Shown: in pieces, positions 6,126-12,070 of the stretch | How positions within the stretch are numbered: position 1 is the stretch's first letter | Layout: every line of letters starts with the position of its first letter | Assembly: GCA_016789005.1 (NCBI GenBank) | Contig: JAEURA010000098.1 | Span: forward strand, 1 to 43,941 | Direction: 5' to 3' | DNA from: Anaerolineae bacterium | Lineage (GTDB): Bacteria > Chloroflexota > Anaerolineae > Aggregatilineales > Phototrophicaceae | Length of the DNA stretch: 43,941 nt | Program-made: the position numbers and the translations under genes | Notes under the pieces: generated by a model | Databases searched by the model: none | The model's input: the letters and a program-made list of their open reading frames with translations, nothing else | What the model was told of the DNA's origin: nothing

Positions 6126-7238
6126 CTATCCTTTCGTAGAACCCTTCAGGTGTTGAACGGCGTGACCTTCGAAACTCGGTTTTTGGGGCGCGCGAATGGG
6201 GTGGCTGTCGAAGATTTGCCTCCGCAAGCCCCAGGTATCGGCATAGCGCACATGGTTGATCCAGCCCTGTACGGTGGCGTCCAGTTCGGCAAACGAGATT
6301 CGCCCTGACTCGTACAAATCGATGTTCCGTTCCAGACGGCGACTGAAACTGACGGCATTGCGCCGCTTGAGCAGCCGGTGTGTTGGGTAAACGATGAATC
6401 CAAGCCAGGGGACTCCGACATGGCAGGGCATGACCTGCGCCGATTCCTGGTGGATTGTCAGCCGCAGTTCGGTTAGTTTGCCGATAATCGCCGCTTTCCA
6501 CGAGTAGAGTTCACGTTTGCTGCGGCTGAACAGCGCAAAGTCATCGACGTAGCGCAGATAGGCGGGGCAGCGCAGCACGCTGACCACAAACCAATCTAGC
6601 GAATCCATGTAGGCATTCGACCAGAACTGTGATGTGAGGTTGCCGATCGGCAGTCCGCGCGGACGTTCGGCAGCAGTTGGTTCGTCGCCGGGAAAGCTGA
6701 CGAGAGTGTATTCATCGCGAAGCACGCCCGCGCCGCTGTTCAGGATGCGGTCCGCCAGCCATAAGGTCTCCGTATCAGAGATCACATTCTCCAGCACGGC
6801 TCGCAGCACGGCATGGTCCAGTGACGGGAAATGCTGCACAACATCCAGGCGCAGGACATAAGGATACGCGCGTGCCAACGCCTGAAGTCGGTCCAAAGCG
6901 CGATGAGTCCCTTTGCCGACGCGATTGGCATAGCTGTCGGGAATAAACCGCGCCTCGAACAGCGGTTCGATCACATTGCACAGGGCATGGTGCACGACGC
7001 GATCCCGGAACGGCGCGGCGCTGATCTTGCGGCGCTTCGGCTCGTGAATGAAGAAGTGGGTATACGCTCCAGGCTGATACACCCTGACGCGCAGTTCTTC
7101 CTGCAGTTCAAGCAGGTGATCGGCAATCTGGTGTTCAAAACAGGCGGCAGGCGGAAGTCCTCGTTTCCCTTTTGCCGCCTTTCGGTAGGCTTGAAGCAGG
7201 TTTTCCCACGCATAGATGGACGCGAACATGGACGACAT
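6126..7238 (-). CDS. Reverse transcriptase of a diversity-generating retroelement
   Basis: A 370-residue RT that copies the template-repeat RNA into adenine-mutated cDNA. It is small and RT-only, with no maturase/X or endonuclease domain. Visible motifs, numbered from the chosen start, are: FRDRVVHHALCNVIEPLFEA near 77, SYANRVGKGTHRALDRL near 102, catalytic LRLDVVQHFPSLDH (Asp132), LPIGNLTSQFWSN at 196-208, YVDDF at 230-234, and WLGFIVYPTHRLLKRR near 278. The IGNLTSQ sequence is the DGR form of RT motif 4 (IGxxxSQ); group II intron and retron RTs have QGxxxSP here. ATG codons at 7244, 7238 and 7229 all fit. I prefer 7238 because GGTGA lies 8 bases upstream. Its 5' end overlaps that of the divergent avd gene. 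TR and VR lie upstream on the same strand, which makes the assignment secure. Confidence 0.96.
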   Translation of the reverse strand: MSSMFASIYAWENLLQAYRKAAKGKRGLPPAACFEHQIADHLLELQEELRVRVYQPGAYTHFFIHEPKRRKISAAPFRDRVVHHALCNVIEPLFEARFIPDSYANRVGKGTHRALDRLQALARAYPYVLRLDVVQHFPSLDHAVLRAVLENVISDTETLWLADRILNSGAGVLRDEYTLVSFPGDEPTAAERPRGLPIGNLTSQFWSNAYMDSLDWFVVSVLRCPAYLRYVDDFALFSRSKRELYSWKAAIIGKLTELRLTIHQESAQVMPCHVGVPWLGFIVYPTHRLLKRRNAVSFSRRLERNIDLYESGRISFAELDATVQGWINHVRYADTWGLRRQIFDSHPIRAPQKPSFEGHAVQHLKGSTKG

Positions 7239-7569
7239 GGTCATCTTCACCCGGACTTTCGATCTGCTCGATTGGCTGCTGCCCCGGAGCTTGAGCTTTC
7301 CACAGCAGCAGCGATTCGTGACAACCAAGCGGTTGCAAGACGCCGCGCTCGACTTTCAGGAAGCGCTCTTTGACGCCAATGCCCACACGGGCAAGGAGCG
7401 CCAGGCTCATCTGCGGCGCGCCGACGCGCACTTGAACAAGCTGCGCCTGTATCTGCGGCTCGTACACCGCTGGCGCTGGCTCAGCGATGGTCAGTACGAA
7501 CATGTCAGCCGGATGGTCGCGGAAATCGGGCGCTTGCTCGGCGGCTGGATCAAGCAGACAGCCGGCTGA
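7216..7569 (+). CDS. avd: Avd accessory variability determinant, four-helix bundle
   Basis: A 117-residue, strongly basic helical protein. Characteristic Avd segments are MVIFTRTFDLLDWLLPRS, QQRFVTTKRLQDAALDFQEA, HLRRADAHLNKLRLYLRLVH and WLSDGQYEHVSRMVAEIGRL, ending LGGWIKQTAG. In studied DGRs Avd forms a pentameric barrel that binds the RT and the TR RNA and is needed for template-primed cDNA synthesis. Unusually, it is on the strand opposite to RT, TR and target, between the TR and the RT gene. Its possible starts (7216, 7228, 7237) overlap the RT start codons on the other strand, so the two genes are divergent with overlapping 5' ends. No strong ribosome site is visible for any of the three starts. 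Transcription from the target/TR side would produce antisense avd RNA. Confidence 0.94.
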   Translation: MDANMDDMVIFTRTFDLLDWLLPRSLSFPQQQRFVTTKRLQDAALDFQEALFDANAHTGKERQAHLRRADAHLNKLRLYLRLVHRWRWLSDGQYEHVSRMVAEIGRLLGGWIKQTAG

Positions 7570-11200: not shown

Positions 11201-12070
11201 GCCTGTTTCGCCATCATCGCGCAGGCGGTCGATGCTGTGATCCAGCTGCAAACGGCGCAGCAGCGTCGACTTGCCGGACCCTGGCGCGCCAAGCAGCACG
11301 AACGCCGGATCAGGTACTTTCGCCAGCACATCGCGCAGATCGCTGAAGCGGAAGTCTTCGGCGCGCTGCCAGCGCTGCGGGTCGCTTTCGCCCTTGTCCA
11401 GCAGCAGAGTCAGGTTGACGAAGCGGTTATCCAGCGCGTAGCGGGGCAGCGACCATTCGGCGATGCGACCGAGGCGGTATTCGGTCAGACTGGTCGGCTT
11501 GTGATCAGCGACCGCCCGCGCCTGCTCCACCGAAAGCACCACGTTCCCCGCCGGGTCGAGCACCGCCGCCAGCAGATCGGCGAGCGCCTGGGGCAGCGTA
11601 CGCGCCTCAACCGGCGCATGGTCGAACACGCCGATCCGGTCCGCGCCGACGGCGGGAGCGGGCGCGTCAAAATCTCGCTTTAGGGCGGTGAGCAGCCGTT
11701 CCAGCGCGGTCTGCAGGTCGGCGCGGGCGTCAATGTAGTTATAGGCGTACAGGCGGCTGTGCAGGTCGCACGCCTGAATGTACAGCGGATAGATCGGTTT
11801 ACGATTCTGGTCGAAGTAGAACCACTCGCGGTGGACTTCCTTGCGATACGGCATCGACGCCGCCGAGAGCAGCAGGACCATCCGCCCGCATTCGCGCAGC
11901 GCCGTCTCGATGGTGATATCCCAGTTCTCGCCTTCGGGGATGTCGCTCGTATCGCGAAACACCCGCACGCCGGCAGCATTTAGATCAGCTTCGATCTGGG
12001 CGGCAACAGCTTGATCTGGGCGGGCATACGAGATGAAGACGTAAAGCTCGTCGGCAGGGTGCTTATCCAT
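8213..12070 (-). CDS. DGR target: TIR - NACHT NTPase - FGE/C-type-lectin protein with inserted DUF559 nuclease domain
   Basis: A 1285-residue multidomain protein. Residues 8-130 are a TIR domain (ELYVFISYARPDQA; candidate catalytic Glu82 in KEVHREWFYF). Residues about 255-600 are a NACHT/STAND NTPase with Walker A GAPGSGKST at 261-269, Walker B ALLLLDALNEM at 340-350, an RLIFSCRSLDY sensor at 378-388 and a winged-helix AFFHQLLQEFFAARQL at 577-592. A helical linker follows. The FGE-sulfatase/C-type-lectin domain spans about 729-906 and 1143-1282 (SIDGGTYPIGDD, PVVGVTWFEARAYCAWL, FRLPTEVEFEAAARG, FDLSGNAYTWTT, RRVLRGGSW). It is split by a 239-residue insertion with a DUF559 nuclease fold. The last 40 residues are the VR. 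By family logic, ligand binding at the variable FGE surface would drive NACHT oligomerisation and TIR NADase signalling or cell death; this is inferred. The ribosome site GAGG is 6 bases before the ATG. Confidence 0.95.
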   Translation of the reverse strand: MDKHPADELYVFISYARPDQAVAAQIEADLNAAGVRVFRDTSDIPEGENWDITIETALRECGRMVLLLSAASMPYRKEVHREWFYFDQNRKPIYPLYIQACDLHSRLYAYNYIDARADLQTALERLLTALKRDFDAPAPAVGADRIGVFDHAPVEARTLPQALADLLAAVLDPAGNVVLSVEQARAVADHKPTSLTEYRLGRIAEWSLPRYALDNRFVNLTLLLDKGESDPQRWQRAEDFRFSDLRDVLAKVPDPAFVLLGAPGSGKSTLLRRLQLDHSIDRLRDDGETGDTITFFIQLNGYRPRADGVLLDPRAWLEARWSERYPNLPPLDTYLKSGTALLLLDALNEMPHRSAAEYHARVGLWRSFAQEAAHLGNRLIFSCRSLDYSASLSSPDLRVPQIEVQPMSAEQVRRFLNVYIPAHEALIWRELDGSPQFSLFQTPYFLKLLCEQVEATRAVPKGRASLFTGFVRQVLYREINGDLFEPDTLLTGHDHQKLSLGKWRSPFDLPERGVLIPRLSALAFTMQVKGLETEGAQVRIDYDDACDLLAHPRSEDILKAGIALNVLDEDITQYEIAFFHQLLQEFFAARQLAENPNSALVHVEWAADQVRPSLDETLAALADGDPLPPLPQTGWEETTLTAAPMAKDPNAFIRALIPHNLPLAARCAASAEVKVDADLKREIQNALIARTHDMSADLRARIAAGEALGILGDPRFERRTGAYGDYLLPPLVSIDGGTYPIGDDASGYDDEKPAHTVELAPFQIGRFPVTNAEYALFVAAGGYEEEQWWDTAEAKAWLRGEGSNEGGKRQWRENRKTLQDWSEDHIRSLVRQNRITSQQAGDWITIRNWSDERFEQQLDEWYPSGKVFREPEYWNDARFNHPAQPVVGVTWFEARAYCAWLTANAFPSTHPSPPTPLPQGERGEVLTLNPSAPWSAEGEALTPDLSPTRGERGEALTLNPSTPGRAEGEVLTPDLSPTRGEGRQERWVISLELAAKMTEVARRLRRQATASEELLWQALRNRQLDGRKFRRQEAVGVFVLDFYCPQERLAVEIDGSIHDLPDQQRADAERQALLESLGIRFVRLSAALVERDLAAALERIRSAFLPAPLGGEGSGVRGSESWNEIVHRSTAGLVGEGSGVRGNALRVFRLPTEVEFEAAARGKDGRRFPYGATFISARCNTFESHLRRSTPVGIFDNATPEGVFDLSGNAYTWTTTIYDQEAHPYPYDAGDGRDDVSRTDVRRVLRGGSWYDDQFNARAAFRYGSGPSGRNNDVGFRVVVGFVPI
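8221..8342 (-). repeat. DGR variable repeat (VR) in the target gene
   Basis: The 122-base counterpart of the TR, encoding target residues about 1243-1283, just before the stop codon. Thirteen codons differ from the TR, all by changes at TR adenines. The variable residues are 1251-1253, 1255, 1261, 1263-1266, 1268, 1269, 1273 and 1274, now Tyr, Asp, Asp, Phe, Phe, Tyr, Gly, Ser, Gly, Ser, Gly, Asp and Val. Substitutions are 11 A-to-G and 6 A-to-T. The repeat overlaps the terminal GGSW...FRVVVGF core of the FGE/C-type-lectin fold, the usual location for DGR variation. The RT-proximal end (29 bases) has no template adenine, so the initiation-of-mutagenic-homing site there cannot be told apart from a distinct TR version. 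Confidence 0.97.
8747..9118 (-). other. DUF559 (Vsr/PD-(D/E)XK-like endonuclease) domain inside the target protein
   Basis: Residues about 985-1108 of the target. The segment runs from EVARRLRRQATASEELLWQA through RNRQLDGRKFRRQEAVG to VLDFYCPQERLAVEIDGS and RQALLESLGIRFVRLSA. This is the DUF559 pattern, with probable metal-binding Asp1041, Glu1052 and Asp1054 retained. The fold is related to very-short-patch-repair and restriction endonucleases. The catalytic-looking residues are intact, so the domain may be active. It has no start codon context of its own and is translated only as part of the target reading frame. Confidence 0.85.
9126..9341. repeat. Tandem 88-89-bp repeat units in the DUF559 cassette
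   Basis: Three palindromic cores of the CTCCCCTTGTGGGAGAG type occur at 9126-9162, 9211-9251 and 9301-9341. They are separated by near-identical spacers containing AGAGGGGTTAAGGGTAAG. GGGGGTGAG recurs at 9153, 9242 and 9330. The units are translated in the target as LTLNPSAPWSAEGEALTPDL and a near copy of it. They lie on the upstream side of the DUF559 domain only. Variation in copy number would preserve frame only if the change in length is a multiple of three. Confidence 0.85.

What the first reader, a model, noticed from the sequence alone, without database searches (positions are those of the whole stretch)
6126..12070. Complete diversity-generating retroelement with all 17 TR/VR differences at template adenines
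RT (IGNLTSQ motif), Avd, TR and VR are all present within 6 kb. I aligned TR 7820-7941 with VR 8221-8342 by eye without gaps. There are 105 identities and 17 mismatches, and each mismatch lies on a minus-strand TR adenine (17 of 31 adenines altered). Thirteen codons change and none becomes a stop. By the established DGR mechanism (template RNA, error-prone cDNA, VR replacement) this is a working or recently working system.
Basis: partly seen in the sequence, partly recalled or inferred. Interest (0 to 1): 0.95.

Follow-up and report, generated by a model that had tools for sequence, protein, structure and literature searches.

The report
Hypermutating bacterial receptor carrying endonuclease cassette
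This stretch of a likely Anaerolineae genome holds a complete diversity-generating retroelement, predicted to rewrite the tip of a likely immune-type sensor; the sensor's tip domain is split in frame by an endonuclease-family gene between palindromic repeats (likely a mobile insertion), and the rewritten segment is followed by a row of short CTG repeats that recurs beside most related targets and beside none of the templates examined, so it likely marks where rewriting happens.

Summary
TR 7820-7941 and VR 8221-8342 differ at 17 of 122 positions, all template adenines (chance 1e-12); RT and Avd are present. As a DGR it is a new member of a published kind (TIR-NACHT-FGE target; Dore et al. 2024).

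(1) The FGE domain holding the VR is interrupted in frame by a 696-nt cassette (8646-9341): a DUF559 endonuclease-family domain between perfect 29-nt inverted repeats. Similar cassettes sit in unrelated proteins; in leucyl-tRNA synthetase 30 of 118 parsed relatives carry one, 88 do not. Likely a mobile, EDxHD-type homing insertion.

(2) Just 3' of the VR lies a CTCTGA heptad array, a pattern found once in the held 5.45-Mb genome. CTG arrays follow 63 of 100 VRs in bacterial and viral DGR loci, 0 of 82 TRs and 74 of 4200 random stretches, in the gap before the known hairpin; BPP-1 lacks one. I found no description of it. Likely a recipient-site signal.

Ongoing activity, endonuclease function and array function are untested; a sister genome has lost most of the locus.

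The parts
6126..7238 (-). reverse transcriptase (DGR type, IGNLTSQ), 370 aa from the ATG at 7238
   Evidence: RVT_1 E 1.4e-12 (scanned from 7328); 45 related loci in genome contigs, best-segment identity 50-72%
7216..7569 (+). avd, accessory variability determinant, on the strand opposite the RT; ATG at 7216, 7228 or 7237
   Evidence: bAvd 5.6e-18; NF033474 above cut-off; Avd opposite to RT in 30 of 45 RT-relative loci, 7 same strand, 8 without an Avd hit
7820..7941 (-). template repeat (TR)
   Evidence: DNA search of the own genome
8221..8342 (-). variable repeat (VR), at the 3' end of the target gene
   Evidence: 17 of 17 differences at TR adenines
8177..8203 (-). CTCTGA heptad array 17 nt 3' of the VR (CTCTGAATCTCTGATCGATGATCTCTG; three CTCTG units and one degenerate unit), putative recipient-site signal
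   Evidence: the only CTCTGAN{0,3}CTCTGA in the held 5.45-Mb genome is at 8190-8203; the same kind of element after 63 of 100 other VRs, 0 of 82 TRs
8126..8158 (-). 15-bp inverted repeat containing a GAA-triloop hairpin, after the array; also terminator-like (T run follows)
8213..12070 (-). target gene, 1285 aa: TIR - NACHT - FGE split by DUF559, VR at C-terminus
   Evidence: Pfam scan
11690..12040 (-). TIR_2 domain (residues 11-127)
   Evidence: E 1.9e-21
10811..11299 (-). NACHT domain (residues 258-420)
   Evidence: E 1.7e-7, 31.7 bits against a cut-off of 26.7
9362..9886 (-). FGE domain, N-terminal half
   Evidence: PF03781 positions 3-110
8234..8653 (-). FGE domain, C-terminal half with the VR
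   Evidence: PF03781 positions 110-254
8646..9341 (-). palindrome-flanked cassette, 696 nt, in frame (232 codons); 29-nt arms 8646-8674 and 9313-9341, 100% complementary; exact outer ends not determined
   Evidence: inverted repeat I7; one open frame
8765..9085 (-). DUF559 (Vsr/EDxHD-like) endonuclease-family domain inside the cassette
8022..8076 (.). solo palindrome of the same kind between TR and target gene
   Evidence: stretch 8018-8085 folds with z -5.8 against shuffles

Best explanation
The window holds a complete diversity-generating retroelement whose RT and Avd are predicted to copy the TR RNA with errors at adenines and would paste the copy over the VR of a TIR-NACHT-FGE protein (a likely immune-type sensor), whose FGE domain is split in frame by a DUF559 cassette between inverted palindromic repeats (likely a mobile, homing-type insertion), and whose VR is followed by a CTCTGA heptad array that likely marks the recipient copy. 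Shown from sequence: the parts, adenine-only TR/VR differences, the open frame through the cassette, its 29-nt inverted arms, relatives without DUF559, and the array's enrichment at VR ends. Inferred: that copying still occurs, that the receptor senses an invader and its TIR domain then acts, that DUF559 cuts DNA and drove its own insertion at a tolerated loop, and that RT/Avd or a host factor recognises the array together with the hairpin beyond it.
For: DGR. Of 45 RT-relative loci 40 have FGE hits and 35 an adenine-biased TR/VR pair. Cassette: DUF559 inside FGE between 29-nt inverted arms; FGE targets without DUF559 in L030, L033, L047, L073, L077; two related proteins with a DUF559 75-77% identical to the window's at the same loop and a third with a distant DUF559 (42%) there; inverted repeats around DUF559 genes above the control's 99th percentile in 22 of 37, control n = 450; LeuRS with (30 of 118) and without (88 of 118) a DUF559 insert at one loop, carriers at 85-93% and non-carriers at 85-91% best-segment identity to the same query among the closest hits; fold of DUF559 like the homing endonuclease I-Bth0305I. 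Array: 38 of 53 bacterial and 25 of 47 viral VR tails, 0 of 38 and 0 of 44 TR tails, 42 of 1900 and 32 of 2300 random stretches; 38 of 41 CTCTG arrays in 46 sequences lie 0-31 nt after a VR or FGE end on its strand.
Against: No second allele or reads of this VR, so activity is inferred. The sister genome G001 kept avd (98%) but lost DUF559, FGE C-half, VR, TR and nearly all of the RT: the locus can decay. Fourfold sites of the FGE-borne DUF559 are as saturated as those of the host between window and L062 (45.5% identical against 45.3% in NACHT), so recent movement is not shown; one old insertion with several losses is possible. 15 of 37 DUF559 genes have no inverted repeat above the 99th percentile; RecQ carries DUF559 as a plain C-terminal fusion; some LeuRS inserts lack the repeat peptides. 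37 of 100 VR tails score below 3 for the array; the window's own array fails the strict three-unit pattern because one unit is degenerate; BPP-1, the one experimentally dissected DGR that I looked at, has none. The window hairpin is also terminator-like.
Confidence: 0.75

Rival explanations
1. Ordinary DGR of the Dore et al. kind, in which DUF559 is a kept, useful domain of the sensor (for example an effector nuclease) and not a mobile insertion.
For: DUF559 is 72-77% identical among the three related FGE-borne copies while the whole proteins are 57-60% identical to the window's, with saturated fourfold sites: the domain is under purifying selection. Two relatives keep a closely related DUF559 at the same loop.
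Against: Near relatives of the carriers lack DUF559 (P0114 beside P0002; P0090 and P0065 beside P0001 and P0037, domains); P0037 has a distant DUF559 (42-45%) at the same loop; similar cassettes sit in LeuRS, PurL, methylmalonyl-CoA mutase and HsdR; the flanks are inverted palindromes with predicted disorder.
Confidence: 0.25
2. The cassette has broken the FGE domain and the DGR is a decaying locus.
For: The sister locus in G001 is truncated just after the palindrome and lost VR, TR and nearly all of the RT. DUF559 with inverted repeats stands where avd and the RT start are missing in L051; L074 is similar.
Against: The window frame is open for 1285 codons; FGE and DUF559 are both modelled as folded, joined by disordered linkers, in a model of middling confidence; TR and VR show no drift at 91 non-adenine positions.
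Confidence: 0.3
3. The CTG array is a 3'-UTR or mRNA feature of target genes, or just shared ancestry, with no part in homing.
For: It lies between stop codon and a terminator-like hairpin in the window. BPP-1 homes without it.
Against: It follows VRs in bacterial loci of several phyla by record title and in viral loci whose RTs go down to 33% identity, and its strict form occurs once in the own genome although 13 other contigs there have FGE matches.
Confidence: 0.25
4. TR and VR are diverged duplicates whose A-only differences are chance.
For: None found.
Against: Probability 1.0e-12; 35 of 45 related loci have a TR/VR pair with 85% or more of the mismatches at adenines.
Confidence: 0.01

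Closest known systems
DGRs of multicellular bacteria with STAND/NACHT-CLec targets (Dore et al. 2024, PMC10907252; abstract, passages and section 7 read)
   Same: RT + TR/VR; targets with NACHT or other STAND NTPase and C-terminal CLec (FGE as a subtype) with VR, some with N-terminal TIR; filamentous chloroflexi and Accumulibacter named among hosts; MITE-like repeats and transposons reshape loci
   Different: No endonuclease insertion in a target and no array after the VR in what I read; supplements were not available
Bordetella phage BPP-1 DGR and its target-site hairpin (Guo et al. 2011, PMC3240598; abstract, passages and section 10 read)
   Same: A-specific mutagenic homing; a hairpin downstream of VR; distance between VR and hairpin called flexible (4-34 bp)
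   Different: BPP-1 has the hairpin within a few bases of the VR end and no CTG array; in the window the array stands between VR and a GAA-loop hairpin 63 nt on
EDxHD homing endonucleases (I-Bth0305I; review PMC3943268, passages) and DUF559/Vsr-like proteins (PMC12907096, one passage; PMC9403480, section 17)
   Different: Here it is not in an intron or a recognised intein but in frame inside host proteins, between palindromic repeats
Rickettsia palindromic elements (recalled; only search listings seen)
   Same: Palindromic repeats inserted in frame in protein genes
   Different: The element here carries its own endonuclease-family domain; no sequence comparison with RPE was made

Membership tests
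Diversity-generating retroelement | TR and VR that differ at TR adenines only | tested here: met
   17 of 17 mismatches
Diversity-generating retroelement | DGR-type reverse transcriptase beside the TR | tested here: met
   RVT_1 and IGNLTSQ; the motif's meaning is recalled; NCBIfam gave only RT models below cut-off
Diversity-generating retroelement | Accessory protein (Avd or HRDC) | tested here: met
   NF033474 above cut-off
Diversity-generating retroelement | VR at the C-terminus of a CLec/FGE-type fold | tested here: met
Diversity-generating retroelement | Hairpin/cruciform downstream of VR, 4-34 bp away, GRNA loop (phage DGRs) | tested here: inconclusive
   GAA-loop hairpin 63 nt after the VR, also terminator-like
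Diversity-generating retroelement | IMH / IMH* at the 3' ends of VR and TR | not tested
   TR and VR are identical over their last 30-odd bases, but no IMH model was applied
Diversity-generating retroelement | Mutagenic retrohoming in cells | not testable with these tools
   needs reads or an assay
Clade 5D DGRs of Dore et al. | RT falls in clade 5D | not tested
   their tree was not available; target architecture fits
EDxHD/Vsr-like endonuclease | Vsr-like catalytic-domain fold | tested here: met
EDxHD/Vsr-like endonuclease | site-specific DNA cutting and homing | not testable with these tools
   no assay
Intein | self-splicing (Hint) domain around the endonuclease | tested here: not met
   no intein family among Pfam hits up to E 0.1; flanks are short repeat-coded peptides
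REP/RAYT element | REP palindromes with a Y1 tyrosine transposase | tested here: not met
   the cassette codes DUF559; no Y1 family among the target's Pfam hits
Insertion sequence / MITE | terminal inverted repeats plus target-site duplication | tested here: inconclusive
   29-nt inverted arms; target duplication not examined

The most novel reading that the evidence does not exclude
Two new things meet here. DGR recipients carry, between VR and hairpin, a conserved CTG-heptad array that the copying machinery (perhaps the Avd ring) reads to tell VR from TR. And DUF559 palindromic cassettes are a class of splicing-free homing elements that spread in frame through proteins, including essential enzymes, and have here settled in the variable domain of a hypermutating immune-type receptor.
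Probability: 0.3. Interest if true: 0.9.

Novelty: new variant of a known kind. Interest (0 to 1): 0.72.

Why it matters
How a DGR tells the copy to be overwritten (VR) from the copy to be preserved (TR) has, in the papers I read, been worked out for BPP-1 (IMH plus hairpin). A sequence element that follows 63 of 100 VRs in bacterial and viral loci and none of 82 TRs gives that question a direct test and a simple way to look for orphan VRs. The cassette matters separately: palindromic repeats inside protein genes are an old puzzle, and copies that carry their own endonuclease-family domain, with occupied and empty sites among close relatives of one aminoacyl-tRNA synthetase, offer a mechanism.

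Tried and rejected
Other VRs in the genome: at E up to 0.001 the TR finds only itself, the VR and one FGE gene on contig 41 at 70%, taken as ordinary FGE homology. Second copies of this RT: only short fragments on contigs 75 and 189. Dating the DUF559 insertion by fourfold sites: saturated, no answer. A hairpin with a stem of 6 or more across the VR end and the next 38 nt: 0 of 53, against 57 of 900 random; a wider search found GNA/GRNA-loop hairpins within 160 nt after 24 of 57 VRs, 0 of 41 TRs, 64 of 2400 random, so 'no hairpin' was dropped. A guide complementary to the array near the TR: TCAGAG occurs 5 times in 37.5 kb of TR regions, about the background of 0.15 per kb; CTCTGA itself occurs 30 times in these regions, which reach 300 nt upstream of the TR and so can include VR tails (not separated). 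Link to TAACTGA repeats of Beggiatoaceae: the main text of that paper has no 'reverse transcriptase' and no CTCTGA (passages). Promoter scan of 7200-8400: none; Rfam at gathering threshold: none. PADLOC gave a general RT model (4.7e-43), DRT-type RTs and weak TIR models; NCBIfam gave, besides Avd, only models below cut-off. Literature on DUF559 insertions and on repeats after VRs: nothing on them seen in the listings, which were partial; of the 14 papers that name DUF559 I looked into two. DUF559 as EDxHD homing endonuclease is in print. Passages of PMC4372165 and PMC6199706 mention hairpins or nothing, no array. An alignment with lone DUF559 rows misaligned and was replaced by A2.

Rows dropped or limits: five duplicate loci (L075, L076, L078-L080); VR tails with the same first 40 nt counted once; one search does not contain the window's own VR and covers L030-L074, L077, L081-L083 and L180-L259; loci L084-L103 were not used for VR tails; of 80 viral loci 57 had a TR/VR pair, and 400 viral candidates were cut to 80. 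One DUF559 gene of 38 (L118) had no downstream flank, and the 37 include the window and six copies from DGR loci or the own genome's other two contigs beyond the 30 search loci; the control positions come from DGR loci that hold some such repeats. The loop parser read 44 of 68 proteins and 118 of 120 LeuRS. 26 of 48 hosts went into the tree. Only 120 of 274 hits and 120 of 7999 were listed. One search scored 6 candidates a genome.
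Full report
1. What was checked. The finding claims a complete DGR at 6126-12070. The chance that all 17 fall on the 31 adenines is 1.0e-12. RT and Avd are confirmed by profile searches.

2. The target and the neighbourhood. The 1285-aa target has TIR_2 (residues 11-127), NACHT (258-420) and FGE-sulfatase, the last in two stretches with DUF559 (996-1102) between them. No other full-length relative of this RT and no other VR was found in the held genome (5.45 Mb, 90% complete). In the 45 loci, 40 have FGE hits, 13 NACHT hits, 35 an adenine-biased TR/VR pair, and Avd is on the strand opposite to the RT in 30 (7 same strand, 8 without an Avd hit). 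This is the DGR kind of Dore et al. 2024 (PMC10907252; abstract, passages and section 7 read): NACHT/STAND targets with C-terminal CLec, some with TIR, in filamentous chloroflexi, Accumulibacter and others, proposed there as antigen sensors.

3. The cassette in the FGE domain. DUF559 is flanked by a fully complementary 29-nt pair, 8646-8674 and 9313-9341 (I7), enclosing 696 nt = 232 codons without a stop in this frame. The arms belong to a dispersed family: CCTCACCCCYRRCCCCTCTCC with up to one mismatch occurs 77 times in the genome, 0 times read backwards, and 5 of the 77 lie in this cassette; GGGGTGAGG occurs 7 times in the window, all at 8066-9339, against 0.27 expected. The insertion point is the FGE loop between AYC.WL and LPTE. 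Of 44 parsed relatives (of 68, found with the window's own sequence as query), 28 have 8-12 residues there, 2 have 15 and 18, 10 have 21-46 and 4 (the window included) have DUF559 in 153-283 residues. An FGE paralogue on contig 331 of the same genome has an insert coded by a repeat of this family at the same loop. So this loop tolerates, and seems to receive repeatedly, in-frame inserts.

4. Mobile or inherited? DUF559 of the window, L062/P0001 and P0002 form one clade among 115 domains (FastTree support 0.98), while P0037's is 42-45% identical to these. Their hosts do not group: in a tree of 26 hosts window + P0046, P0002 + P0114 (no DUF559) and P0037 + P0065 (no DUF559) are each 100/100 pairs, and presence needs 4 changes, counting the deleted P0046 as a former carrier. 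Either elements of one kind entered the same site more than once, or an old insertion was lost several times; fourfold sites are saturated and cannot decide. P0046 is the gene at the matching place of G001 (L143): 95% identical up to the loop, with the left palindrome, then cut off; avd is 98% identical at DNA level; DUF559, VR, TR and the RT apart from a short tail are gone. Hence the palindrome was likely there before the two genomes parted.

5. Is that general? Around 37 DUF559 genes (of 38; one had no flank) the best inverted repeat between the 450-nt flanks exceeds the 95th percentile of 450 random positions in 28 and the 99th in 22 (Fisher about 9e-24, taking 5 of 450 for the control). 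Of the 120 listed proteins (274 hits), 76 besides the window have DUF559; it interrupts, for example, PurL, LeuRS and methylmalonyl-CoA mutase and lies between two domains of MetRS, with flanking peptides such as PHPPAPSPTRGEG and LPSP..GEG.GVR. RecQ has it as a plain C-terminal fusion without such flanks. In LeuRS 30 of 118 parsed proteins have DUF559 at one loop and 88 do not; the closest carriers are 85-93% and the closest non-carriers 85-91% identical to the query (best segments, about half the query for non-carriers).

7. The array after the VR. Reading VR ends side by side showed repeated CTCTGA heptads. At least 3 CTCTG occur in the 80 nt after 36 of 53 VRs, 0 of 37 TRs and 10 of 3600 random stretches, spaced 7 (51 times), 8 (30) or 9 (15), with fewer other spacings. 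Of 41 such arrays in 46 sequences 38 begin 0-31 nt after a VR or FGE end on the same strand; by eye two of the other three (L031, L059) also follow a VR-like end and L038 does not. In the own genome CTCTGAN{0,3}CTCTGA occurs once, at 8190-8203, beside this VR. A strict three-unit pattern holds for 40 of 57 VRs, 0 of 41 TRs and 23 of 2400 random stretches; the window's own array fails it, as one unit is degenerate. With a looser score (CTG units 6-9 nt apart, one degenerate unit allowed) 38 of 53 bacterial and 25 of 47 viral VR tails reach 3, 0 of 38 and 0 of 44 TR tails, 42 of 1900 and 32 of 2300 random; VR against TR, Fisher 7e-23, without correction for relatedness of the loci. Some viral tails read VR - about four CTG units - GC stem with a GATA-type loop (for example L184, L205, L224). 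BPP-1 has the hairpin almost at once and no array. Guo et al. 2011 (PMC3240598; passages and section 10) report hairpins 4-34 bp after the VR and call the distance flexible; the array lies in that gap. Roux et al. 2021 (PMC8144416; passages) suggest that VRs are C-terminal because cis elements can then lie outside coding sequence. I found no description of the array in the listings or in the passages read; supplements could not be read.

8. How it most likely works. Shown: parts, order, adenine bias, array, cassette. Inferred from established DGR work: TR RNA is copied by RT/Avd with adenine errors and the cDNA replaces the VR. Inferred here: the array, with the hairpin beyond it, labels the recipient; the sensor's variable face samples ligands and TIR acts after NACHT-driven assembly; DUF559 is a tolerated guest domain on flexible linkers that would cut DNA for its own spread. 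By my tally the commonest number of CTCTG units is 5 (17 of 41 arrays), which would fit a pentameric Avd (recalled); but in the viral set the commonest score is 4, so that is only an idea.

9. Verdict. As a DGR: a new member of a published kind. With the endonuclease-family cassette in the variable domain and the array, which I did not find described, it is a new variant, and the array and the cassette class are each worth following on their own.

Noticed in passing
7216-7569 and 6126-7238: avd and RT are head to head with overlapping start regions, so a TR-to-RT transcript would run antisense to avd; Avd is opposite to the RT in 30 of 45 RT-relative loci.
   Followed up: partly
L143 1736-2080 against window 12050-12070: The sister gene in G001 has an EAD8 domain before TIR; the window gene lacks it and starts MDKH then TIR.
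   Followed up: partly
L143 5683-6143: Two small genes that look like a HicB/HicA pair stand where most of the RT is missing in the degraded sister locus; naming is by eye and recalled.
   Followed up: no
L051 9514-9978 and L074 around 9528-9869: DUF559 with 35-nt inverted repeats lies between a TR-like FGE fragment and the RT; in L051 avd and the first 30 RT residues have no match.
   Followed up: partly
L046 4379-5399: Two very similar DUF559 genes in tandem, each with flanking palindromes, in an Accumulibacter DGR locus.
   Followed up: no
L015 (G000 contig 331): FGE paralogue with a repeat-coded insert at the same FGE loop.
   Followed up: partly
9115-9345: The N-terminal side of the cassette holds three copies of the palindrome, 90 and 88 nt apart.
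   Followed up: no
12145-13449: Neighbouring gene of 434 aa with only weak TPR-like matches.
   Followed up: no
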